Shown here in pieces: positions 507-31,550 of a stretch of DNA of 36,590 bases; within the stretch, counting starts at the first letter, position 1; every line of letters starts with the position of its first letter. The notes beneath the pieces are model-generated. The model was given only the letters and a program-made list of their open reading frames with translations, was not told the origin of the DNA and ran no database searches. A program made the position numbers and the translations under genes. The stretch lies in assembly GCF_000312305.1 (NCBI RefSeq), contig NZ_HE999450.1:113283-149872 (forward strand), in the 5' to 3' direction. The DNA is from Prevotella conceptionensis 9403948. Lineage in GTDB: Bacteria; Bacteroidota; Bacteroidia; Bacteroidales; Bacteroidaceae.

Positions 507-722
507 TGAGGAGTTCTTTTTAGGAGTTAAGGAGTTATGGAGTTCTTTTTGGGGAGTTAAGGAGTTATGGAGTTAAGGAGTTAAGCCAATAGCTTTGCGG
601 TTAACGGCAGCATTTTATACTTCTTGTTAACTTGTCCCCTTGTCCACTCACCAACTCATTAACTTGTCAACTGGTTAACTTGTCAACTGGTTAACCCGTC
701 AACTTGTCCACTCATTAGCTCG
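507..722. repeat. Octamer satellite between convergent genes
   Basis: The left part (about 508-592) is built from AAGGAGTT/ATGGAGTT octamers reading in the sense of the upstream plus-strand gene. The right part (about 625-722) is built from AACTTGTC/AACTCATT octamers, which read as GACAAGTT in the sense of the minus-strand DUF4435 gene. The two halves form an imperfect inverted arrangement. The words AAGCCAATAGCTTTGCGG join them. The DUF4435 stop codon (715-717) lies inside the satellite. Confidence 0.85.
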
Positions 723-1737: not shown

Positions 1738-2035
1738 GTATGTTTAAAGGTGAAAGGGCTTTTAAAGGTGAAAAAGCTTTTAAAGGTGAAAAAGTGAAAG
1801 GGTGAAAAGGTGAAAAGATGGCTGCGCCTCTTAGCTTGTTAGCTCGCAACCTTGTTAACTCGTGAACTTGCCAACTCGTGAACTTGCCAACTCGTGAACT
1901 TGTCAACTCGTGAGCTTGTCAACTCGTCAATTTGTCAACTCGTGAACTTGTCAGTTTGTTAACTTGCCAACTTGTCAACTCGTCAACTTGTTAACCCGTC
2001 AACTCGTGAACTCGTGAACTCGTCCATCCACCAGC
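1738..2035. repeat. Octamer satellites between ATPase and DUF4435 genes
   Basis: About 1742-1822 is an AAAGGTGA-type octamer array on the plus strand. It ends in the word GATGGCTGCGCC, which recurs next to the satellites at 17918, 17984 and 18050. About 1840-2030 is a long AACTCGTG/AACTTGTC octamer array, roughly two dozen units, reading CACGAGTT in the sense of the ATPase gene. This fills the whole intercistronic gap. The open frame across the array is a by-product of low complexity. Confidence 0.88.
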
Positions 2036-5396: not shown

Positions 5397-5456
5397 ATCA
5401 TATCAATTAAACTCACAAGCTTATCAACTGACAAACTCACAAACTCATAAACTAAA
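5397..5456 (+). repeat. Short AAACTCAC/AAACTCAT octamer array
   Basis: Degenerate octamers of the AAACTCAC/AAACTCAT type end 14 bp before element A. The same type of array, much longer, directly precedes element B. Confidence 0.7.
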
Positions 5457-5469
5457 AAAATACCACATC

Positions 5470-6102
5470 TTTTACAAATTGCACTCTGCTTGCCACCCCA
5501 TTCTAGCGAAAAAATGGCTTAAAAGTAGGCAAATCAATGCTATTTCTGCCTTTTACGTCTCTTCTTTTTGTCCTTTTTTGCGAACATTACGTGCATTTAG
5601 CACCACTTTGCCTTTCTAGATGGTTGCCTAATTGTTGTTTTTCACTCCCCCAATAACGCACTTTTAGCCCCTAAAACTCCACTTTTTAATGTGTATTTTG
5701 CCCTTTTTAGCTATGTTTTTTATGGTTCGGAATGGTTTTGTCTATACAATTGCGGTGAATATTTATGCTTATCGACTCGCATTTAGAAGCATTTTGCACT
5801 ACTTTTAGCACCAAAATAGCTTGCATTTAGCACCAAAATACACTGCATTTAGCACCAAAACGCACTGCGTTTAGCACCAAAACACACTGCATTTAGCACC
5901 AAAATGCACTACATTTAGCAGCAAATAGCACAAAGTATGGTGCAAACTGCGGTTTTATGCAATGCGTATTCATTTTGTCGGCATCCACAACTACCCCCCT
6001 TTTGCATCCAGACAAACCTTCATGAGAATCGGATTTTTGCGGTCGAGTGGGCGGTTGGTGACTGAAAATGGCACTCATAATGTTAAAAAACGTGCTGAAA
6101 AT
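5470..6102 (+). repeat. Dispersed non-coding element, copy A
   Basis: This element of about 633 bp is homologous to 27379-27989. Landmarks shared at identical relative spacing are TTTTACAAA (5470), TTCTAGCG (5501), the palindrome TTTTAGCCCCTAAAA (5662), the 22-bp array (from 5779), GGTGCAAA (5939), GAGAATCG (6024), ACTCATAATGTTAAAA (6073) and CTGAAAAT (6095). No open frame is shared between the copies, and the one length difference (22 bp) is not a multiple of three, so the element is not a conserved coding region. It occupies the 1.1-kb gap between two divergent genes and ends about 90 bp before the cysK promoter. Confidence 0.88.
5779..5932 (+). repeat. 22-bp tandem array in element A (7 units)
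   Basis: Seven units of exactly 22 bp start at 5779, 5801, 5823, 5845, 5867, 5889 and 5911. The core is GYRTTTAGCACCAAAA followed by six variable bases ending mostly in CACT. The outer units are the most diverged, as expected of an ageing satellite. Confidence 0.95.
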
Positions 6103-7210: not shown

Positions 7211-7820
7211 GGAGTCTTCTTTGTAAGGAGTTAAGGAGTTATGGAGTTAAGGAGTTAAGCCAAATGCTTGAAGGAGTTAAGCCATTTGTTGAAGGAGTTA
7301 AGGATTTATGGAGTTAAGGAGTCAAGCCATTTGTTGAAGGAGTTAAGGAGTTAAGGAGTTAAGCCAATTGCTTGAAGGAGTTAAGAAGTTAAGGAGTTAA
7401 GCCAAATGCCTTGCTGTCATGAACAAATACCCTTGGTTAGCTTGTTCCCTTATCGCAAAGCTATTGGCTTAACTCCTTAACTTCATACTCCTTTACTCCA
7501 AAATTGAAAGGGTTAAAAGGATGGAATGGCTAACGCCCAAAGGACATTTGGCTTAACCATAACTCCTAACTCGAATGTGTTAAAAGAGTGAGGAATGGGC
7601 TAATGCCCAAAGGACATTTGGCTTAACTTCTTAACTCCATAACTCCTTAACTCCTAAACCTGAAAGGGTAAGAAAGGTGAAGAATGGCCTAACACCAATA
7701 AGACATCTGGCTTAACTCCTTAACTCCTAAAATTGAAAGAGTAAGAAGGGTGAAGGAATGGTTAGCGCTAAAAAAGCTATCGGCTTAACTCCTTAACTCC
7801 ATAACTCCTTAACTCCTTCA
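7211..7820. repeat. 600-bp inverted octamer satellite
   Basis: The left half (about 7211-7405) is AAGGAGTT/ATGGAGTT octamers broken by AAGCCAAATGCTTG words, in the sense of cysK. The right half (about 7455-7820) is the reverse complement (GGCTTAACTCC, TTAACTCCATAACTCC), in the sense of the C1 peptidase gene. Overall this is a long imperfect inverted repeat between convergent genes. No gene is present. Confidence 0.88.
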
Positions 7821-7825
7821 AGCAA

Positions 7826-14766: not shown

Positions 14767-15017
14767 ATTGGCCGAAGAATCAGGTGGAATAAAGAGCCTC
14801 TACGCAGTTCATAACAGGCTTTATACCCAACCTCTCTCCAAAGGGAAAGGGGAATGATGTGCTTTCCCAATTGCGTTGTAAGGCACAGTTTAAAGGATGT
14901 TTTGAGGGTTTCGAGACCATGTTTGACAAGTGTGTTGGCTGTTGTAATTATGCTTGTTCAATACGTTTTTTTGCAACCAATGCAGTACAAGCTATCTTGT
15001 ACAGCGAGTACAAGTGG
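14767..15017. other. Non-coding gap after helicase
   Basis: It contains a degenerate GC-rich dyad (14831-14852, CTCTCC AAAGGGAAAGG) of the same kind as at 4102-4133, which may act as a terminator. The short open frames here have no recognisable protein character. Confidence 0.4.
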
Positions 15018-15105
15018 CTTGTAGTCACACTACAAACTACTTGTAGCCACGCTACAAGCTGCTTGTAGTCGCACTACAAGCTGCTTGTAGTGTCAGTCTT
15101 TGTAG
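15018..15105. repeat. 22-bp tandem array with internal dyads
   Basis: Four units of exactly 22 bp start at 15018, 15040, 15062 and 15084. Each begins CTTGTAG, and the first three carry the complementary CTACAA(G), for example CTTGTAGTCGCACTACAAG. Every full unit is therefore itself a hairpin or a two-fold symmetric binding site. Outlying half-motifs (ACAAGCTATCTTGT, GTACAAGTGG) lie just upstream. Confidence 0.88.
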
Positions 15106-15159: not shown

Positions 15160-15300
15160 ATAATTTAAGGAGTTCATTTTAGGAGTTATGGAGTTAAGGA
15201 GTTATGGAGTTAAGGAGTTATGGAGTTAAGGAGTTAAGCCAAATGCCTTGATGGCGTTAGCCATTTTTTCACCTTTTCACCCTTTCACCCTTTCACCTTT
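15160..15300. repeat. Octamer satellites between convergent genes
   Basis: About 15165-15240 is AAGGAGTT/ATGGAGTT in the sense of the helicase gene. About 15266-15300 is TCACCTTT/TCACCCTT, which reads AAAGGTGA in the sense of the phosphatase gene. The second tract encodes the last residues and the stop codon of the phosphatase. Confidence 0.85.
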
Positions 15301-15797
15301 AACACCCTCACTTCCGCATTCCCCATCTTCTCCACTTCGTGCATTTCCTTGTTGTAGAACACGCTTTGTATAGCCTTATTGATGATGCCGTGGCCCACGG
15401 CTAGCACCGTTTGGTTGGGGTAGCGTTGGACAATCATGTCGAGAAAGAGGCGGGCGCGATGCTTGATGTCCGTTAGCGACTCCACATCTTCGGGCCAAAC
15501 CTTGCCTTTTAAGCTAGGAATAAACTCGCCAGTGAAACCGCCCCAATCGCGTTCGCGCAAGAGTGGAGTGGTGCAGAAAGGCTTATTGTGTGGCGCAGCA
15601 ATGATACTACAGGTGTGTTCGGCGCGTTGTAAGTCGCTACTTACAAAGGCGTCGATGGGCGTATCGCTAAGTTCGCGAGCCAACTTTTCGGCTTGTGCCA
15701 CGCCCGTTTCGTTCAGTTCGCCTTGCGTTTGACCTTGAAGTATTTGGTTAGCGTTGGCCACAGTCTCGCCGTGGCGCACCAATAAAAGTGTTGTCAT
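15285..15797 (-). CDS. Histidine phosphatase family protein
   Basis: This 170-aa enzyme of the phosphoglycerate mutase-like branch of histidine phosphatases has the phosphohistidine motif VRHGET (Arg8, His9). It also has the second arginine region SSDLQRAEHT, Glu82 in LRERDWGGF, and the second catalytic histidine His136 in AVGHG. These enzymes dephosphorylate small phosphate esters; cobalamin phosphatase CobC and broad-specificity phosphatases look alike, and no cobalamin genes are nearby. The final LKVKG and the TGA stop come from an AAAGGTGA satellite, so the C-terminus could vary between strains by unit gain or loss. Its promoter overlaps that of the divergent DUF308 gene. Confidence 0.92.
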   Translation of the reverse strand: MTTLLLVRHGETVANANQILQGQTQGELNETGVAQAEKLARELSDTPIDAFVSSDLQRAEHTCSIIAAPHNKPFCTTPLLRERDWGGFTGEFIPSLKGKVWPEDVESLTDIKHRARLFLDMIVQRYPNQTVLAVGHGIINKAIQSVFYNKEMHEVEKMGNAEVRVLKVKG

Positions 15798-17870: not shown

Positions 17871-17875
17871 GAAGA

Positions 17876-18140
17876 CTTTGTAAAGGTGAAAAGGTGAAAG
17901 AGTGAAAAGGTGAAAAAATGGCTGCGCGTATGAACTTGTTCTCTTGTTAACTCGTAAACTTGCTAGCTAATAATGTTGAAAAGGTGGCTGCGCGCATGAA
18001 CTTGTTCTCTCGTTAACTCGTAAACTTCTCAGCTAATAATGTTGAAAAGATGGCTGCACCTATTAGCGTGTTCTCTCGTTAATAGGCGCAGCCATCTTTT
18101 CACCCTTTCACTTTTTCACCTTTCCACCTTTCCAACTTTT
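17876..18140. repeat. 66-bp direct repeats flanked by AAAGGTGA octamers
   Basis: AAAGGTGA octamers (17882-17915) in the sense of the upstream gene lead into units that start with TGGCTGCGC/TGGCTGCAC at 17919, 17985 and 18051, a 66-bp period. Each unit contains AACTTGTTCTC and GTTAACTCGTAAAC words. On the right, TCACCTTT octamers (about 18098-18140) read AAAGGTGA in the sense of the sulfatase gene. The two satellites thus mirror each other between convergent genes. Confidence 0.85.
18045..18100. terminator. Strong bidirectional hairpin built from satellite sequence
   Basis: Two 21-nt arms (18045-18065, beginning AAAAGATGGCTGC; 18080-18100, ending GCAGCCATCTTTT) are complementary except for one position, with a 14-nt loop. 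The A-rich and T-rich outer ends give a terminator-like structure on both strands between convergent genes. Confidence 0.7.
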
Positions 18141-18192
18141 CCTTGTGATTGATGGGGGTTATAACCACCAACAAAGCGATGTGTTGCTCCCT

Positions 18193-20266: not shown

Positions 20267-22888
20267 TTATTGGCAAGCCAGTTCAACGGCCTTGTCTACG
20301 GCCACAGAAATACCGTCGAGGTTTTTGCCACCTGCCGACGCATAATGGGGCTGACCGCCACCGCCACCTTGGATAAGCTTGGCGGCCTCGCGGATAATTT
20401 GGCCTGCGTTCAGTCCGTGTTCGCTCACCACATCGTCGCTGAACATGATGCTAAGCAAAGGTTTGTCGTTGGCTGTTGAGCCGACAACGCACACCAAGTG
20501 TTGAGGAATGGCCTCGCGAACCTTAAACACCAGGTTCTTGGCTTGCTCGGCATTGATGGGCAAAACAGCCTTAACCACTTTCAGTCCGTTTACATCTTTG
20601 GCATTTGCAACAAGGCTATCTTTAAGTCTTTCTACGGCTTGTGCCGAAAATTTTTCTATCTCTTTGCGCATGGCATCGTGTTCTTCCATGTACTTAGCGA
20701 TAACTCCTTGCAGGTCTTTGGCATTGTTAAAGAGGTTGCGAATGCCGCGAAGAGTGTCTTCCAACACGTACATAGCCTCCTCACAACGCTTTCCTGTGAG
20801 GGCCTCTACACGGCGTATGCCGGCTGCCACGCTGCTTTCGCTAACGATTTTGAACATACCGATACGGCCCGTGCTACGGGCGTGGATGCCGCCGCAGAAC
20901 TCGCAGCTGGGTCCGAAACGCACAACGCGCACCGTATCGCCGTATTTCTCGCCGAACAAGGCTACTGCACCCATCGCCTTAGCCTCTTCTAAGGGTGTAT
21001 TGCGGTGCTCGTCGAGTGGCAGATCTTGTCGAATAAGGTCGTTTACAAGGCGTTCCACCTCGCGAAGTTCTTCGTCTGTAACCTTTTGGAAGTGCGAAAA
21101 GTCGAAACGCAACGTGTCGGGAGCTACCAACGAACCCTTTTGTTCAACGAGTTCGCCTAGCACGGCCTTCAAGGCATAATCAAGTAGGTGGGTTGCCGTG
21201 TGGTTGGCAGCACTTGCTTCGCGCTTATCCGTATCCACACATGCCATAAAGTCGGCCTTGGGGTCTTTGGGTAGGGCCTTCACGATGTGTATGCTTTGGT
21301 TGTTTTCGCGCTTTGTATCGATGATGTCAACCGTTTCTTCGCCGTTTACCAGCACGCCGCAGTCGCCTACTTGTCCGCCCATCTCGCCATAAAATGGCGT
21401 GTTGTCGAGCACCAACTCAAAGTAAGTGTTTTTCTTTTGCGTAACTTGACGATAGCGAAGTATGCGACACTCGTACTCGGTATAGTCGTAACCCACGAAG
21501 TTTTGTTCGCCTTCGCGCAGCACAACCCAATCGGAGTTCTCCACGGCAGCGGCGTTTCGTGCCCGTTCCTTTTGCTTTTGCATCTCCACATCAAACTGGG
21601 CCGCATCTACTTGTAGCCCGTTTTCGCGGCAAATAAGCTCTGTAAGGTCGAGCGGAAAGCCGTACGTGTCGAACAGGCGGAAGGCTTGCGTGCCGTCGAG
21701 TGTGGTTTTCCCCTCGGCTTTCAAGCGGTCCATTTCATCGTTAAGCATCGAGATCCCCTTTTCTAGCGTGCGGAGGAAAGCGTCTTCTTCTTCTTTCATC
21801 ACGCGGCCAATGAGTTCGCGTTGCGCTTTTAGTTCGGGGTAGGCCTCGCCCATCTCGTGGATGAAGGTGGGCAATAGCTTAAACATGAAGGCCGAACGTT
21901 GCCCCAAGAACGTGTAGGCGCAGCGAACAGCGCGGCGAAGGATGCGGCGAATAACGTATCCTGCCTTGGCATTGCCTGGCAATTGGCCGTCGGCAATGGA
22001 GAAAGCCACGGCTCTAAGATGGTCGGCAATCACACGCATGGCCACGTCCACCTTCTCGTCTTCGCCGTATTTCAGGCCCGACAGGCGTGAAATCTCTTGT
22101 ATAACGGGTTGGAAAACATCGGTATCGTAGTTGGATGTCTTGCCTTGCAGCGAGCGAACAAGGCGCTCGAATCCCATACCCGTATCAATAACGTGCATGG
22201 GCAGGGGCTGCAACGAGCCGTCGGACTTGCGATTAAACTGCATAAACACGATGTTCCATATCTCGATAACCTGCGGATTATCCTTGTTTACAAGGCTTGC
22301 GCCAGGCACTTCGGCCTTTTCTTTGGCCGAACGAGAATCGAGATGTATCTCCGAACAGGGGCCGCATGGACCTGTTTCGCCCATCTCCCAGAAGTTGTCG
22401 TGCTTGTTTCCGTTGATGATATGGTCGGCAGGTAGGTGCTTTGCCCAATACTCTGCGGCCTCGTCGTCGCGTGCAATGCCCTCTTCTTCGCTGCCTTCAA
22501 ACACCGTTACGTATAGGTCTTGCGGATTAAGGTGCAGCACATCTACCAGGTATTCCCACGCATAGTCTATGGCCTCGCGCTTAAAATAGTCGCCAAAGCT
22601 CCAATTACCCAACATCTCGAACATAGTGTGGTGGTAGGTGTCGTGGCCCACTTCTTCCAAGTCGTTATGCTTTCCGCTTACGCGAAGACACTTTTGCGAG
22701 TCGGCCCTGCGGCGTGGTTCGGGGTCGCGTGTACCCAAAATGATGTCCTTCCATTGGTTCATGCCCGCGTTTGTGAACATCAATGTGGGGTCGTCTTTAA
22801 TCACCATGGGGGCCGAGGCCACTATTTTGTGTCCTTTCCCTTCAAAAAAATGTTTGAAGGAGTCGCGTATTTCGTTCGCTGTCATCAT
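20267..22888 (-). CDS. alaS: Alanyl-tRNA synthetase
   Basis: This full-length 873-aa AlaRS charges tRNA-Ala in the cytoplasm. In order are the class II catalytic core (residues 1-245, with [11 protein letters not shown] and the [10 protein letters not shown] segment), the tRNA-recognition helices, and the editing domain with its zinc site HTATH (563-567) plus Cys662/His669 in CEFCGGIH. The C-terminal C-Ala domain ends in [14 protein letters not shown]. All functional motifs are intact. The start may be either of two adjacent ATG codons (22888 or 22885). A hairpin lies in the leader. The gene is probably monocistronic, divergent from the MerR regulator. Confidence 0.98.
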
Positions 22889-23832: not shown

Positions 23833-24786
23833 TTACTTTTGGGTTTCCAATTCGCCCAAATAGCGTTCGGCCTCCAAAGCGGCCATGCAGCCCGAACCCG
23901 CAGCAACAACTGCCTGACGATAAACGGGGTCGGCACAATCGCCAGCCGCAAACACGCCTGCAACATTGGTTTTAGGTGTTCCTGCAACGGTTTTGATGTA
24001 GCCTATCTCGTCGAGGTCGAGCCAATCTTTAAACACATCGGTGTTGGGTTTGTGCCCAATGGCCAGGAAAAAACCGTCAATAGGCAAGTCGTAGCGTTGT
24101 TCGTCGCTTTCGCCCTTGCGCTTTACGAGGTGTGCGCCCTGCAAGCCGTCTTCGCCATAAAGGCCTAACGTGTTGTGTTCGTATAGGATTTCGATTTTGG
24201 GATTGCTCTCAACGCGTTTCTTCATCACGTCTGATGCGCGCAAGAACGGCTTACGTACAATCATATATACCTTCGAGCAGAGCCCTGCAAGGTAGCTGGC
24301 CTCTTCGCAAGCAGTGTCGCCACCGCCCACAACAGCCACCGTTTTGTTGCGATAGAAAAAACCGTCGCAAGTGGCACATGCGCTAACGCCTTGTCCAGAA
24401 TACTTCTCTTCGTCGGGCAAACCAAGGTATTTGGCCGATGCACCCGTGGCGATAATCACCGTTTCGGCCTCTATCTCCACACCGCGATCGGTGGTAACTA
24501 CGTATGGTTTGTTGCTGAAATCAACCTTAACAATCTCTCCGTCGCGAATGTCTGTACCAAAGCGGGCAGCCTGTTCGCGCAGTTCCACCATCATTTGGTT
24601 GCCGTCCACTCCCTTGGGATAGCCAGGGAAGTTCTCGATTTCGGTTGTTTGGGTGAGTTGTCCGCCCGTTTGCATTCCACAATATTGCACTGGGCTTAGG
24701 TTGGCTCTTCCTGCATAGATGGCAGCTGTGTAGCCAGCAGGACCGCTACCCACGATAAGGCAGCGCGTATATTCTCTTTTTTCCAT
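23833..24786 (-). CDS. trxB: Thioredoxin reductase
   Basis: This NADPH-dependent FAD enzyme of 317 aa reduces thioredoxin. It shows the FAD-binding GSGPAG (13-18), the redox-active CATC (137-140), the NADPH-binding GGGDTA (154-159) and the C-terminal FAD motif VFAAGDCAD. The longer frame from 24849 would add 21 residues made from a DNA dyad, while MEKREYTRCLIVGSG begins the fold, so the ATG at 24784-24786 is chosen. A nested inverted repeat lies 28-69 bp upstream and is a candidate control site. It neighbours glutathione peroxidase on the same strand; the two may belong to the same stress response but have a 460-bp gap. Confidence 0.96.
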   Translation of the reverse strand: MEKREYTRCLIVGSGPAGYTAAIYAGRANLSPVQYCGMQTGGQLTQTTEIENFPGYPKGVDGNQMMVELREQAARFGTDIRDGEIVKVDFSNKPYVVTTDRGVEIEAETVIIATGASAKYLGLPDEEKYSGQGVSACATCDGFFYRNKTVAVVGGGDTACEEASYLAGLCSKVYMIVRKPFLRASDVMKKRVESNPKIEILYEHNTLGLYGEDGLQGAHLVKRKGESDEQRYDLPIDGFFLAIGHKPNTDVFKDWLDLDEIGYIKTVAGTPKTNVAGVFAAGDCADPVYRQAVVAAGSGCMAALEAERYLGELETQK

Positions 24787-24813
24787 AAATGATTTGTTTT
24801 TAAATTGGGGTGT

Positions 24814-24855
24814 ACCCATTATGTAAACATTGTGCAAACAATGTGCCAAATGGGT
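24814..24855 (-). promoter_or_regulatory. Nested inverted repeat upstream of trxB
   Basis: Outer arms ACCCATT (24814-24820) and AATGGGT (24849-24855) enclose ACATTG-TGCAAA-CAATGT (24827-24844). All four arms are perfect within pairs. It may be a regulator operator or a leader hairpin. No -7 element was recognised nearby on the minus strand. Confidence 0.55.
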
Positions 24856-25246
24856 GTTTCGTGGGGTTTGCCGATGGTTTAAGATGCGAAAAAGGAGTTA
24901 AAGAGCGCGCCCAACGTGCCACTATACTTGCTGTACCGCGGCTGTTGAAAACCTGCATCATGGCCCTTACCTTTATCTATATAAAAAAGTGGTGTGGCCG
25001 CATGTTTAAGTATCTCTCTTTAACTCCCCTCGTGCTCAGTGCTTACGCATTAAAGGCATGTTCTAGAAATTCCCCGCAAAGGTTCATTTGTTGTTCTTTG
25101 TATTGCTCTTCACTGTCTTTTTGCTTTTATCTGGCATCTTTGGCTTACTCTTTCAGTCGCATAGGTATCTATGCTCCTTCAAGAAGTAAGCAAAACCTGC
25201 TCAGCTAAAAGCTAAAAATACAGCAAAGGCAATTTTTAGAACCTGC
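24856..25246. other. Non-coding gap between gpx and trxB
   Basis: No supported gene. The open frame spanning it lacks protein character. It ends with TTTTTAGAACCTGCCTA next to the gpx stop, a word that recurs (GAACCTGCC at 2998, 16127 and 35419) in other intergenic dyads. Confidence 0.4.
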
Positions 25247-26723: not shown

Positions 26724-26752
26724 CGGACGAGCTTATAAGCTCGTCCGTTTTT
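26724..26752 (+). terminator. Rho-independent terminator (perfect palindrome)
   Basis: A perfect 24-bp palindrome (26724-26747, arms CGGACGAGCTT) is followed by a T-tract (GTTTTTG), 125 bp after the lipoprotein stop. Confidence 0.88.
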
Positions 26753-26769
26753 GTTGTGTGCCTTATAAC

Positions 26770-27365
26770 CTTGCAAACTCATAAACTCAACAACTTATAA
26801 ACGCACCTTCTTATGAACTTACAAGCTTGGAATTCATAAACTTATTGACTCACGAACTCAACATCTAGAAAGCGCAACAACGTATAACCTTGTAGCCCCA
26901 TAAGCTCAACAACGCACAGCCTTTGCAGCTTACAAATTCACGAGCTTAATAACTTGCAAACGCAACAACGTATAACCTTGTAGCCCCATAAACTCAACAA
27001 CTCATAGTTTTAGCAGCTTACAAATTCACGAGCTTAACAACTTGCAAACGCAACAACGTATAACCTTGTAGCCCCATAAACTCAACAACTCACAGCCTTT
27101 GCAGCTTACAAACTTACGAGCTTAACAACTTGCAAACTCAACAACATATAACTTTGTAACCCCATAAACTCAACAACTCACAGTTTTAGCAGCTCACAAA
27201 CCCACAAACTCAACAACTCGAAAACGCCAAAACTTATAACCTTAATTGCTCAACAACTCACAAACAAATAACCTCAACAACTCGCCAATATAATAACTGA
27301 ACAACTCGCCAACTCAACAACTCGTAAACTTATTGCGTTACACGCTCATAAACTCAACACCTTAT
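26770..27365 (+). repeat. Long AAACTCAT/CAACAACT octamer satellite
   Basis: About 600 bp of octamers of the form AAACTCAT, TCAACAAC, TTACAAAT and similar. It leads directly into element B, just as a shorter array of the same type leads into element A. No open frame of coding character is present. Confidence 0.88.
26874..27225 (+). repeat. 88-bp higher-order repeat (4 units)
   Basis: Units start at 26874, 26962, 27050 and 27138, each beginning with CAACAACGTATAACCTTGTA or a close variant. Each 88-bp unit divides into eleven octamers, so a block of eleven octamers was duplicated repeatedly. The first three units are nearly identical; the fourth is diverged. Confidence 0.92.
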
Positions 27366-27378
27366 TTATGTACAAATA

Positions 27379-27989
27379 TTTTACAAAACATACCTAATCC
27401 ACCACACCCTTCTAGCGAAAATATAGGTGTTTTATCGGGCTTTTTACCATATTTTGCAAGCTTGCAGGCTTCGTTTTTAGTCCATTTTTGAGAAAAATAG
27501 CCGCATTTTGTACCATTTCGCCTTTCTAGTTTGGTCGTCAACTCATTATTTTTTGCGCCCAATTACTCGCTTTTAGCCCCTAAAAACCCACTTTTTAACG
27601 ACTATTTTGCCCTTTTCAGCCATATTCTTAGTGGCTCGAAGGGGTTGTATTTATACCATTGCAATGTATTTTTATGCTTTTCGCCCTACATTTAGCACCA
27701 TTTTGCCTTGCGTTTAGCACCAAAACACACTGCGTTTAGCACCAAAACGCACTGCGTTTAGCATCAAAACGCACTGCATTTAGCAGCAAATCGCACTGAG
27801 TTTAGCACCAAAACACCCCAAAACTGGTGCAAATGGTGGTCTTTTGAAATAAATATTCATTTTGCTGCATGCACAAACTAGACCCTTTTTGCATCAAAAC
27901 AAACCTCCGCGAGAATCGATTTTTTGCGGCAAGGTGAGCGGTTGGTTGACGAAAAGGGTACTCATAATGTTAAAATTTTTACTGAAAAT
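27379..27989 (+). repeat. Dispersed non-coding element, copy B
   Basis: This element of about 611 bp is homologous to 5470-6102 in the same orientation. Landmarks are TTTTACAAA (27379), TTCTAGCG (27410), TTTTAGCCCCTAAAA (27571), the 22-bp array (27688), GGTGCAAA (27826), GAGAATCG (27911), ACTCATAATGTTAAAA (27960) and CTGAAAAT (27982). All spacings equal those in copy A except across the array, which is 22 bp shorter. The surrounding genes differ from those of copy A. Confidence 0.88.
27688..27819 (+). repeat. 22-bp tandem array in element B (6 units)
   Basis: Six units of exactly 22 bp start at 27688, 27710, 27732, 27754, 27776 and 27798, with the core GCGTTTAGCACCAAAA. The array lies 117 bp after the palindrome and 6 bp before GGTGCAAA, as in copy A. 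Confidence 0.95.
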
Positions 27990-28562
27990 CGGACAAAAGT
28001 AAACGTGCAGCCCAGCGTTTACTTGTTTGCCACAATGTGTTTTCTCGTTTGTAGGTTCTGCCTAAGATGCTGTCATGCTTATAGCAAGGTATATATACGC
28101 TTGGTTCAAGGTGCTGATACACGCTGCTTTTCTGTTTGTAGTGGCACTGTCTGCAACGGAGAATGAACAACTCTCTTATAGGTGATGATGAATTTTGTTT
28201 GTGATTGGAACTATGGGAATACGGCAGTTTGGTGATTAAGGCTTTGTAAGTAGATACAAAGCAGGCATTAACGCCCAAGTTCTGGGTGGGTTTGGGGTTG
28301 CTTATAACGCTGGCTTAATAGAAGGACAAGGGCTTTTGGCGTGGGTTGTGCACGGGAAGGCAACATGCTTTTGTGCATGCACAACGATAAAAACGGCCGT
28401 TGTGTCTTTTAGAAACTGCCTAACTAACGTAGAACGTGGAAGTTAATGGGGCATAAACAGGCGAGGGCACGAACTGAAAATGCCTTTGGGGTAAAAGTAA
28501 AATTGCACTGTATGATCAAGGGCTAACGCCTTTCGGATAACGTGCTAAGCCAGTTTTTTACC
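27990..28562. other. Non-coding gap before nuclease gene
   Basis: About 570 bp without a supported gene. The short frames have no protein character. It contains TAGGTTCTGCCTAAG and TAGAAACTGCCTAA words related to the dyads elsewhere, but no clear hairpin and no octamer array. Confidence 0.4.
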
Positions 28563-29625: not shown

Positions 29626-29877
29626 TTATTTTTTGATCTTACCGTAGCGGTTCATGAAACGGTCTACGCGACCTGCCGTGTCGACAAGCTTGCTCTTACC
29701 CGTATAGAAGGGGTGCGAGGTGCTTGAGATTTCAATCTTTACCACGGGGTAAGTTTCGCCTTCAAACTCTACTGTGTCGTTTGTTTTGCAAGTAGACTGT
29801 GAAAGGAACATATCGCCGTTGGACATATCTTTGAATACGACGGGGCGATAGTTTTCGGGGTGAATACCTTTTTTCAT
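29626..29877 (-). CDS. rpmE2: 50S ribosomal protein L31 type B
   Basis: This 83-aa ribosomal protein L31 is of the zinc-free type. It shows the N-terminal [19 protein letters not shown], the central [24 protein letters not shown] and a basic C-terminus. The four cysteines of the zinc-binding type A are missing (one Cys only), so it is type B. In many bacteria type B genes are repressed by Zur when zinc is present, and a symmetric site overlaps the promoter here. A terminator follows the gene. Confidence 0.96.
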
Positions 29878-29989: not shown

Positions 29990-30085
29990 GACCTGTTAAC
30001 TAGGAACGATGCCAGCAGGCCAGTTAACAAGTTAACGAGTTGACAAGAATTTTCGCCTGATGACAAGTTAACAAGCTGGCTAAGA
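29990..30085. repeat. Short degenerate octamer tract
   Basis: AGTTAACAAG, GTTAACGAGTTGACAAG and GACAAGTTAACAAGC are octamer-like words of the GACAAGTT type. Unlike most other tracts, they read opposite to the sense of the gene that ends nearby (30171, minus strand). The rest of 29958-30170 holds nothing recognised. Confidence 0.6.
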
Positions 30086-30170: not shown

Positions 30171-31550
30171 TTACTTTGCGTATACAACAGTAACTTTAAG
30201 TATGCGCATTTGTACGCCACCGCCCTTGGGCTCTGAGAACACGTTCTTGTAAGTTACCGAGTTACCTGAGAAAGAAACAGTAGCCGTGGTATTGCCTACA
30301 TATATGTCTTCCTTGAACTTGTCGCAGTTAAGGACAACCTTGGCAATCTTCTTGTTCCCAGTTATGGTGAAGCTGTTATTCTTATACACACGCACTTGAT
30401 GATACTGTTTAAAATGAGTTGGCACATTCTGTTCACCATTTCCATCAAAGGTCATCTTCAACCCTTGGCCCAGCTCTATTGATTTAATTGGTTTTTTATC
30501 TGGTTCTTCCAACTTGCTCATTTCATAGACTACCGATTCTGTTCCTGCCTCTGCGTTGGCATTAGCTAATGTTACAACTGTCCCGTCAATAGAAAGTTCT
30601 TTACCCGTTTGGGGCGTTTCAGGCTTTTCTGGAGTAGTTCCGCCTGCCTCTTTCTGGCCGTTAAGCATATAGATATACGACTTGTTGGCCTCGGTTTCGG
30701 GCGTATTGCCTTTGAAATTAATGAACGTACCATAGATAACAACCTCGTCACCCACCTTAATTTGGTTGTCTGCGGTGAACTTGGCGTTACCTAAATACAT
30801 GCTACGGAAGATCTGCAAGCTATCCATCTTCTTGGTATTGTCGTCCGAAATATAGTAAGTGGCATTACCATATTGGCCTTTATCAACCGATTTGATAAAC
30901 CTTATTTTACCCTTTACATAAATATTTTCAAGTTTACCATCGGCAGCCAACGCCCTAATCTTAGCCAAGGCCGCCGTTACGTTGTAAGGCTCGGTCTCTG
31001 TTCCTGCGCCCTTAGGTTCGCCAGGAACTAGCGTTTCGGCCTCAACGGTCTTACCATTAAGCGAGTGAATCCACGAATTGTTGGGTTCGCTTTCGGGCGT
31101 ATTGCCCTTGAAGTTGACGAAAGTTCCACGGATAACAACCTCGTCGCCTGCTTTAATTTGATCTTTCGCAGTGAACTTGGCCTTGCCTAAATACTTGCTA
31201 CGGTATATCTGCAAGCTATCCATCTTTTTGGTAATGTCGTCGGAAATAAAGTAAGTGGCGTTGTAGAACTTATCTGTATCCACTTCCTTAACACTTCTAA
31301 TCTTTCCTTTCACAAAGATTTCGCCTGTATTCTCTCCGTCTTTCAGGGTCTTAATCTTCGCCAAGGCGGCAGTAACGTTATAAGGCTCGGCTTCTGTTCC
31401 TTTGCCGGTAGGCGTGCCAGGTTCAGGCACTTCTTGGTTTCCACCCTTGTTTTCGTTCGGGTTGGTGTATGGTTCGGGGACGTCTTGACATCCCCCAAGC
31501 ATGGCGGTAGCAAGGGCCGCTATCAATATTGCATAGATTACTTTTTTCAT
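30171..31550 (-). CDS. Lipoprotein with two tandem OB-fold-like domains
   Basis: This 459-aa lipoprotein (signal MKKVIYAILIAALATAMLGGC, Cys21) has a Pro/Glu/Asn-rich linker (25-50) and two very similar domains at about 51-166 and 183-298. Each begins G(T/A)EtEPYNVTAALAKI and continues through (F/Y)VKGKIR, NATY(F/Y)ISDD, DSLQI(Y/F)RS and GDEVVI.GTF.NFKGNTPE. The pattern of short strands resembles OB-fold domains (DUF6359-like) in Bacteroidetes surface nucleases and adhesins. A third, different C-terminal domain (about 318-459, beta-rich, ILKVTVVY) follows. The two copies are also similar at DNA level, with a period of about 390 bp, which indicates a fairly recent tandem duplication. It is last in a run with the DUF5689 and TonB-receptor genes. 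Confidence 0.82.
   Translation of the reverse strand: MKKVIYAILIAALATAMLGGCQDVPEPYTNPNENKGGNQEVPEPGTPTGKGTEAEPYNVTAALAKIKTLKDGENTGEIFVKGKIRSVKEVDTDKFYNATYFISDDITKKMDSLQIYRSKYLGKAKFTAKDQIKAGDEVVIRGTFVNFKGNTPESEPNNSWIHSLNGKTVEAETLVPGEPKGAGTETEPYNVTAALAKIRALAADGKLENIYVKGKIRFIKSVDKGQYGNATYYISDDNTKKMDSLQIFRSMYLGNAKFTADNQIKVGDEVVIYGTFINFKGNTPETEANKSYIYMLNGQKEAGGTTPEKPETPQTGKELSIDGTVVTLANANAEAGTESVVYEMSKLEEPDKKPIKSIELGQGLKMTFDGNGEQNVPTHFKQYHQVRVYKNNSFTITGNKKIAKVVLNCDKFKEDIYVGNTTATVSFSGNSVTYKNVFSEPKGGGVQMRILKVTVVYAK

What the first reader, a model, noticed from the sequence alone, without database searches (positions are those of the whole stretch)
507..722. Octamer satellites follow gene 3' ends with strand matched to the gene
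Nine gene ends (GNAT, DUF4435, ATPase, cysK, C1 peptidase, helicase, phosphatase, NAD(P)-binding protein, sulfatase) are followed by octamers that read NNNNAGTT (AAGGAGTT, GACAAGTT, CACGAGTT) or AAAGGTGA in the gene's own sense direction. Exceptions are the tract at 1742-1822 and the one near 30000-30085. Random satellites would show no strand rule. They may act in transcription termination, mRNA 3' protection, or arise from a transcription-linked mechanism.
Basis: seen in the sequence. Interest (0 to 1): 0.72.

Follow-up and report, generated by a model that had tools for sequence, protein, structure and literature searches.

The report
Facing octamer arrays between bacterial genes
In a Prevotella-like bacterium, many gaps between genes hold two runs of an eight-letter DNA repeat that point at each other, which makes the repeats look matched to gene direction at gene ends although they mainly follow the geometry of a head-to-head repeat element of unproven function.

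Summary
The nine gene ends are as described, but the list of exceptions is incomplete (26750-27330 also reads antisense to the gene before it). The interpretation mostly fails for this genome. In 1.6 Mb of it I found 328 octamer arrays (4 in reversed controls, 1 inside a gene). Within 60 bp of a 3' end 49 of 52 read sense; within 60 bp of a 5' end 31 of 33 read antisense, so both point into the gap. The unit is a head-to-head element: polar array, short centre, opposed array, often of another octamer. Eight of the nine window ends lie in convergent gaps, where facing geometry and gene strand cannot be told apart. Elements are rare in divergent gaps of 100-1000 bp (2 of 68 against 75 of 403), as REPs are, but not in divergent gaps over 1 kb (15 of 31). 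Terminator signals are not enriched behind abutting arrays; same-family pairs fold, mixed pairs do not. In two sister species with another octamer, arrays often start at the stop codon and do follow gene strand (19 of 24 tandem).

The parts
507..587 (+). AAGGAGTT array, reads inward from the GNAT 3' end
588..632 (.). centre of element 1; 42 of 45 bases identical in the syntenic species G178
633..714 (-). GACAAGTT-type array, reads inward from the DUF4435 3' end (seen, below the threshold)
1743..1820 (+).
1817..1856 (.). centre of element 2 (GATGGCTGCGCC half-site onward); 39 of 40 bases identical in G178
1851..2026 (-). CACGAGTT/GACAAGTT-type array, 17 detected units, reads inward from the ATPase 3' end
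7222..7405 (+). AAGGAGTT arrays behind the cysK-type gene; the gap is 615 bp here and 272 bp in G178
7409..7470 (.). centre of element 3; 54 of 62 bases identical in G178
7463..7821 (-). AAGGAGTT arrays in longer repeated blocks, read inward from the C1 peptidase 3' end
15161..15240 (+). AAGGAGTT array downstream of the helicase
15236..15262 (.). short centre AAGCCAAATGCC...GGCGTTAGCC; 24 of 27 bases identical in G178
15262..15308 (-). AAAGGTGA array, reads inward from the phosphatase 3' end (seen, below the threshold)
17882..17916 (+). AAAGGTGA array behind the NAD(P)-binding gene
17917..18091 (.). centre of element 5 with a 66-bp tandem block; 17871-18150 folds with z -10.6
18092..18141 (-). 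AAAGGTGA array, reads inward from the sulfatase 3' end
30020..30076 (+). degenerate NNNNAGTT fragment in mid-gap (second exception): inward from the 5' side of the ORF 29626-29877 (about 145 bp away), outward from the nearer 3' end of 30171-31550 (about 95 bp); no partner detected
   Evidence: below the threshold

Best explanation
Most of these octamers are arms of a composite intergenic repeat element. Each arm is a polar array (AAGGAGTT, NACRAGTT or AAAGGTGA); the AAGGAGTT and AAAGGTGA arrays run into their own inner half-site (AAGCC and ATGGC/T), and two such half-elements are joined head to head. Seen from either edge of the gap one therefore reads the 'sense' octamer going in, and at a gene 3' end this looks like matching to the gene. 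Shown: the facing geometry, the inner half-sites, recurring centre lengths, centres kept and arms changed in length between two species, rarity in divergent gaps of 100-1000 bp. Inferred: the elements are transcribed as 3'-UTR or intercistronic RNA and behave like REP/BIME elements, tolerated or useful behind stop codons and kept away from promoters; arms grow and shrink by slippage and unequal exchange until they meet a gene; half-elements are swapped by recombination. Whether they act on mRNA ends or are mainly passengers is not shown.
For: Among neighbouring arrays within 250 bp: facing 39, back-to-back 3, same direction 97; by subtype, different-subtype pairs face 32 to 3 and same-subtype pairs 11 to 0. 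Arrays within 60 bp of a boundary point inward in 49 of 52 at 3' ends and 31 of 33 at 5' ends (Fisher against a gene-strand rule p = 2e-17). Inner half-site at 93 of 120 AAAGGTGA and 45 of 50 AAGGAGTT arrays (of 344 arrays, the window's 16 included); the mirrored motif at the outer end at 1 of 120 and 0 of 50. Centre lengths recur: 32-33 bases in 5 of 11 AAAGGTGA/AAGGAGTT pairs, 20 in 6 of 13 AAAGGTGA/NACRAGTT pairs. Four window centres are 159 of 174 identical at the orthologous place in G178 while fourfold sites are 70% identical; arms differ in copy number. Array-free 3' edges show no like skew (G-C skew -0.004). Divergent gaps of 100-1000 bp 2 of 68 against 75 of 403 (p = 6e-4). Same geometry within 60 bp in G178 (3' ends 7 to 0, 5' ends 2 to 0, facing 4 to 0) and, with 12 arrays in all, in four further species (3' ends 7 to 0, 5' ends 3 to 0, facing 1 to 0).
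Against: In two sister species with TTGAAGAA octamers most arrays counted stand alone and follow gene strand, so head-to-head joining is not universal for such satellites. In this genome 35 gaps of 60-600 bp hold arrays of one orientation only, and 8 of them show an opposed remnant ahead, so many arrays lack a recognisable partner. At 60-400 bp from a 3' end the nearest array points outward more often (40 of 56), which I read as the far arm but did not prove; in the window, 26750-27330, 5409-5453 and 30020-30076 point outward from the nearer edge. Divergent gaps over 1 kb carry arrays in 15 of 31; missed genes may lie in them, which I did not test. Array-free aligned gaps are about as conserved (89%, 26 gaps) as the centres, and two longer element spans are less so (165 of 192 and 143 of 181), so conservation does not single the centres out. 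No linked transposase was found and no expression data were at hand.
Confidence: 0.65

Rival explanations
1. Bidirectional RNA hairpins: the two arms pair in the transcript and the structure terminates transcription or protects mRNA 3' ends.
For: 17 of 18 same-family facing pairs fold better than shuffles (z below -2, median -6.3); window 17871-18150 has z -10.6. The AAAGGTGA half-site carries a GGC-loop-GCC-AT-TTTT mini-hairpin with a 3- or 4-base loop in 82 of 95 places. Terminator signals occur at 33 of 98 3' ends whose gap holds arrays that do not abut inward, against 99 of 432 without arrays.
Against: 24 of 42 elements folded join different families and do not fold (1 of 24 with z below -2, median -0.2), yet different-subtype pairs face 32 to 3. 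Behind abutting arrays terminator signals are 10 of 58. Mixed elements in tandem gaps show no direction (10 to 7, p = 0.63). Where an array lies within 60 bp of a start, 0 of 30 have a TAnnTTTG word between array and start, though that space is short (84 of 478 array-free cases have one in the last 60 bases), so the downstream gene may need read-through.
Confidence: 0.17
2. A strand rule set by transcription or by the gene end itself.
For: 49 of 52 sense within 60 bp of 3' ends. In G201 and G234, 19 of 24 tandem arrays are sense (p = 0.007), and all 16 arrays that start within 4 bases of a stop codon (13 tandem, 3 convergent) are sense.
Against: Own genome: 31 of 33 antisense within 60 bp of 5' ends, 103 of 223 sense over all tandem arrays.
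Confidence: 0.08
3. Miniature transposable elements with internal satellites, like BrickBuilt of Porphyromonas gingivalis.
For: Multicopy, intergenic, lineage-limited: the exact AAGGAGTT/AAGCC and AAAGGTGA/ATGGCT words occur in 2 of 201 family genomes, this one and G178. Copy number of the units varies between species.
Against: Of 12 syntenic gaps with arrays in either species, 7 have them in both, so they are mostly inherited in place; in the 11 gaps that I aligned I saw no clean empty site with target duplication for an octamer element.
Confidence: 0.15

Closest known systems
REP / BIME elements (repetitive extragenic palindromes and their head-to-head or tail-to-tail pairs)
   Same: Many copies, intergenic, mainly between convergent and co-directional genes (PMC3733652, passages seen; here), opposed pairs around a short centre. 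That BIMEs combine different REP subtypes is recalled.
   Different: Units here are arrays of a non-palindromic octamer, not a 20-40 bp palindrome with a GTAG or CGTC tag; no Y1 transposase match in this genome or G178, though three other array-bearing species (G227, G228, G209) have one or two.
BrickBuilt minisatellite MITE of Porphyromonas gingivalis (PMC4596501; abstract and section 9 seen)
   Same: Tandem repeat bricks between leader and tail, intergenic, copy number changes between strains.
   Different: 23-nt bricks in one run with small terminal inverted repeats and, for one element, a GAAA target duplication; here 8-nt units in two opposed arms and no target duplication shown.
Intrinsic (Rho-independent) terminators
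   Same: Some elements form strong hairpins, and the ATGGC half-site is followed by T's in one direction.
   Different: No enrichment of hairpin-plus-T signals behind abutting arrays; most mixed elements do not fold.

Membership tests
REP/BIME | Located between convergent or co-directional genes, rare between divergent genes | tested here: met
   gaps of 100-1000 bp: divergent 2 of 68, tandem 61 of 339, convergent 14 of 64; not seen in gaps over 1 kb (15 of 31, 45 of 99, 16 of 34)
REP/BIME | Pairs of units in opposite orientation | tested here: met
   facing 39, back-to-back 3 (same direction 97)
REP/BIME | 20-40 bp imperfect palindrome with a GTAG or CGTC tag | tested here: not met
   the unit is an octamer array with a short half-site; only a GGC-loop-GCC mini-hairpin. 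The tags themselves were not searched for
REP/BIME | Associated RAYT (Y1) transposase in the genome | tested here: not met
   PF01797 0 matches in G000 (92% complete) and in G178; 7 of the 14 genomes searched have matches
BrickBuilt-like MITE | Tandem repeat core, intergenic | tested here: met
   (1 of 328 arrays inside a called gene)
BrickBuilt-like MITE | Terminal inverted repeats and target-site duplication shown by filled and empty sites | tested here: inconclusive
   7 of 12 loci shared with G178; no clean empty site seen for an octamer element
Intrinsic terminator | Stable hairpin followed by a T-run on the gene's sense strand, enriched at gene 3' ends | tested here: inconclusive
   10 of 58 with abutting array, 33 of 98 with arrays placed otherwise, 99 of 432 without; the test also did not separate array-free 3' ends from array-free 5' ends (109 of 464), so its power is low
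Known RNA families (Rfam 15) | Covariance-model match at gathering score | tested here: not met
   0 matches in the window

The most novel reading that the evidence does not exclude
The arrays are frame-independent stop-codon arrays at gene ends. Eight is not a multiple of three, and most sense octamers carry a stop (TAA in AAGGAGTTAA, TGA in AAAGGTGA, GTTGAC and TTGAAGAA; CACGAGTT is an exception), so a run of three puts a stop in all frames. In this genome 206 of 328 arrays have stops in all three frames in the first 32 sense bases against 36 of 912 array-free intergenic 32-mers; antisense, AAAGGTGA arrays have no stop in any frame in 109 of 116, NNNNAGTT arrays have all three frames stopped in 38 of 212. 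In sister species 9 of 32 placed arrays begin inside the gene's own TGA stop codon. Bacteria of this genus would thus guard gene ends against read-through and frameshift with lineage-specific octamers. Against it: in this genome many abutting arrays (31 of 33 at 5' ends) lie antisense.
Probability: 0.1. Interest if true: 0.75.

Novelty: new variant of a known kind. Interest (0 to 1): 0.5.

Why it matters
Satellite arrays with strict polarity are, to my knowledge, unusual in bacteria. A facing rule that holds for arms that do not pair cannot be explained by hairpins alone, so it gives a handle on how bacterial intergenic repeats are assembled and why species of one genus carry different octamers in the same kind of place. 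It also shows how a window rich in convergent gaps can mimic a gene-strand rule. If the sister-species pattern holds genome-wide, gene ends themselves seed satellites there.

Tried and rejected
A gene-strand rule (rejected for the part of this genome examined). Intrinsic terminators (weak test, mixed result). Pairing of arms as the cause of facing (rejected for mixed pairs). REP with RAYT transposase (none in G000 or G178). General GC skew of gap edges (3' edge -0.004, 5' edge 0.081 read inward; too small). Known RNA families. A preferred direction of mixed elements relative to genes. Rows left out: 7 of 207 tracts could not be assigned to a family; gaps with runs of 20 or more N were left out; gaps without two flanking genes were left out of the gene-end counts; each array-bearing gap gives its first and its last array, so a lone array is counted at both edges (292 entries from 146 gaps); only pairs spanning at most 420 bases without N were folded (42, three of them from the window). 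In G234 5 of 16 arrays and in G201 4 of 25 had no usable gap and were dropped. C1 served for exploration and is in the pooled counts. Stretches of G201 and G234 were chosen around known pattern hits, so their counts say nothing about abundance. Literature: judged by titles and abstract starts, the listed rows (1 of 1, 4 of 4, 12 of 24 and 10 of 81 papers) held no description of octamer satellites in Prevotella; the library holds open-licence papers only.

Full report
What the window shows. The nine ends lie in only five gaps. Four are convergent, where both ends see a 'sense' octamer whenever two arrays face each other. The second exception (about 30020-30076) lies in mid-gap, inward from the 5' side of the ORF 29626-29877 (about 145 bp away; it looks like ribosomal protein L31, recalled) and outward from the nearer 3' end of 30171-31550 (about 95 bp). 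So all five elements behind the nine ends face inward, and three further array groups in the window do not help either rule.

Genome-wide test. The window is contig C8:113283-149872 of a 4.08 Mb genome in 102 contigs, 92% complete. The best match of the 873-aa protein at 20267-22888 is 81% identical, in a contig titled uncultured Prevotella. I took the first 400 kb of C1-C4 and called genes with my own hexamer caller, which is not benchmarked; coding density came out at 59-68%. Arrays of at least three units were 328, with 4 in the reversed sequence and 1 inside a gene. Nearest arrays within 60 bp: 3' ends 49 inward and 3 outward; 5' ends 31 inward and 2 outward. Inward at a 3' end is sense to the gene, inward at a 5' end is antisense, so a gene-strand rule is rejected (Fisher p = 2e-17). 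Neighbouring arrays within 250 bp face 39 times, stand back to back 3 times and run the same way 97 times. Over all tandem gaps 103 arrays are sense and 120 antisense (p = 0.28). At 60-400 bp from a 3' end the nearest array is mostly outward (40 of 56); I read these as far arms whose near arm is too short to be detected. Of 35 gaps of 60-600 bp with arrays of one orientation, 31 have the array nearer the edge it points away from, and 8 show an opposed remnant ahead, none behind.

Anatomy. Two array types have polarity toward an inner half-site: AAAGGTGA arrays run into ATGGC/T (93 of 120), AAGGAGTT arrays into AAGCC (45 of 50), while the mirrored motif at the outer end occurs in 1 of 120 and 0 of 50 (344 arrays with the window's 16). 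In 37 of 120 cases the AAAGGTGA half-site also lies at the outer end in the same orientation, because whole array-plus-half-site blocks are repeated in tandem. Facing pairs are mostly of different subtypes: 32 different and 11 same, against 3 and 0 back to back. Centre lengths recur at 32-33 and 20 bases. The AAAGGTGA half-site is a GGC-loop-GCC mini-hairpin followed by AT and T's in 82 of 95 places, with loops of 3 (44) or 4 (38) bases.

Why facing is not base pairing. Same-family pairs fold strongly (17 of 18 with z below -2), different-family pairs do not (1 of 24), and array-free gaps lie between (12 of 33). Facing is as strict in mixed pairs, so the hairpin is not its cause. A search for hairpin-plus-T signals in C1-C4 and the window gives 10 of 58 behind 3' ends with an abutting inward array, 33 of 98 where the gap holds arrays placed otherwise, and 99 of 432 without arrays; array-free 5' ends give 109 of 464, so the test has little power. 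Mixed elements in tandem gaps have no preferred direction (10 to 7).

Place in the genome. Gaps of 100-1000 bp carry arrays in 61 of 339 tandem, 14 of 64 convergent and 2 of 68 divergent cases (C1-C4 and C8); in five other species 11 of 104, 9 of 28 and 2 of 40. In gaps over 1 kb of C1-C4 the numbers are 45 of 99, 16 of 34 and 15 of 31, so the rarity in divergent gaps is shown only below 1 kb; missed genes in the long gaps are a possible reason, not tested. Where an array lies within 60 bp of a start codon, a TAnnTTTG word lies between in 0 of 30 cases; array-free gaps have one in the last 60 bases in 84 of 478, but the space compared is shorter in the first group. These genes may be read through the element. 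The promoter word is recalled for Bacteroidales. The distribution resembles that reported for REP elements (PMC3733652, passages).

Evolution. The exact words occur in 2 of 201 family genomes, this one and G178. A generic (RAGTTNNN)x4 word occurs in 38 of 80 genus genomes, this one included, at very different counts, from none to 564 overlapping matches here. G178 is syntenic with a median gene identity of 88.8% over 67 genes; of 43 syntenic gaps compared, arrays are in both species in 7, only here in 4, only there in 1 (my count of its rows). Four window centres are 159 of 174 identical, two longer spans with arm sequence 165 of 192 and 143 of 181; fourfold sites are 70% and 26 array-free gaps 89% identical. 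Arms differ by whole units. The facing rule recurs within 60 bp in G178 and, with 12 arrays in all, in four other species.

A different rule in sister species. G201 and G234 have TTGAAGAA/TTGAAGGA octamers instead. Most arrays counted there stand alone, although one search lists a facing pair in each genome (G234 C2 near 24,750-24,830; G201 C14 near 43,710-43,790) that my gap counts do not include. Of 24 in tandem gaps 19 are sense (p = 0.007), and all 16 that begin within 4 bases of a stop codon are sense (13 tandem, 3 convergent).

Stop codons. In the sense direction 206 of 328 arrays hold stops in all three frames within 32 bases and 310 of 328 in at least two, against 36 and 228 of 912 array-free pieces; the antisense direction of AAAGGTGA arrays has none in 109 of 116, that of NNNNAGTT arrays none in 44 of 212 and all three frames in 38 of 212. 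With about five octamer families this is suggestive, not proof.

Judgement. Shown: polarity, facing, half-sites, rarity in divergent gaps below 1 kb, retention in place between two species. Inferred: a REP/BIME-like role or tolerance in transcribed non-coding DNA. Not shown: any effect on RNA.

Noticed in passing
window 5400-6100 and 26750-27990: Two copies of a longer repeat with 22-bp TTTAGCACCAAAA.. arrays and a neighbouring AACTCA octamer array. The gap with the first copy is 1111 bp here and 421 bp in G178, the second 1964 and 779 bp; G178 holds relatives elsewhere.
   Followed up: partly
arrays of the 'other AGTT' subtype in C1-C4 and window: 30 of 117 have TTGTAAAA in the outer flank (22 with TGTAAAAT), so some probably belong to another composite element.
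   Followed up: no
window about 25050-25240: About 170-190 bp present here and absent from the orthologous gap of G178 (427 against 260 bp), ending in TTTTTAGAACCTGCCT, a word with several similar copies in window gaps.
   Followed up: no
window 15009-15091: 22-bp tandem repeat with an internal palindrome (TACAAGC..GCTTGTA) beside the octamer element, shared with G178.
   Followed up: no
L021-L100: Tandem repeats in 80 loci, most of them titled Prevotella or other Bacteroidales, have favoured periods: 7 (45 tracts), 22 (15), 21 (10), 9 (7), 8 (5).
   Followed up: partly
G000 C1-C4: Coding density by my caller is only 59-68%, low for a bacterium, with many gaps over 1 kb.
   Followed up: no
G201, G234 stretches (L215-L234): TTGAAGAA arrays begin inside the gene's own TGA stop codon in 9 of 32 placed arrays.
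   Followed up: partly
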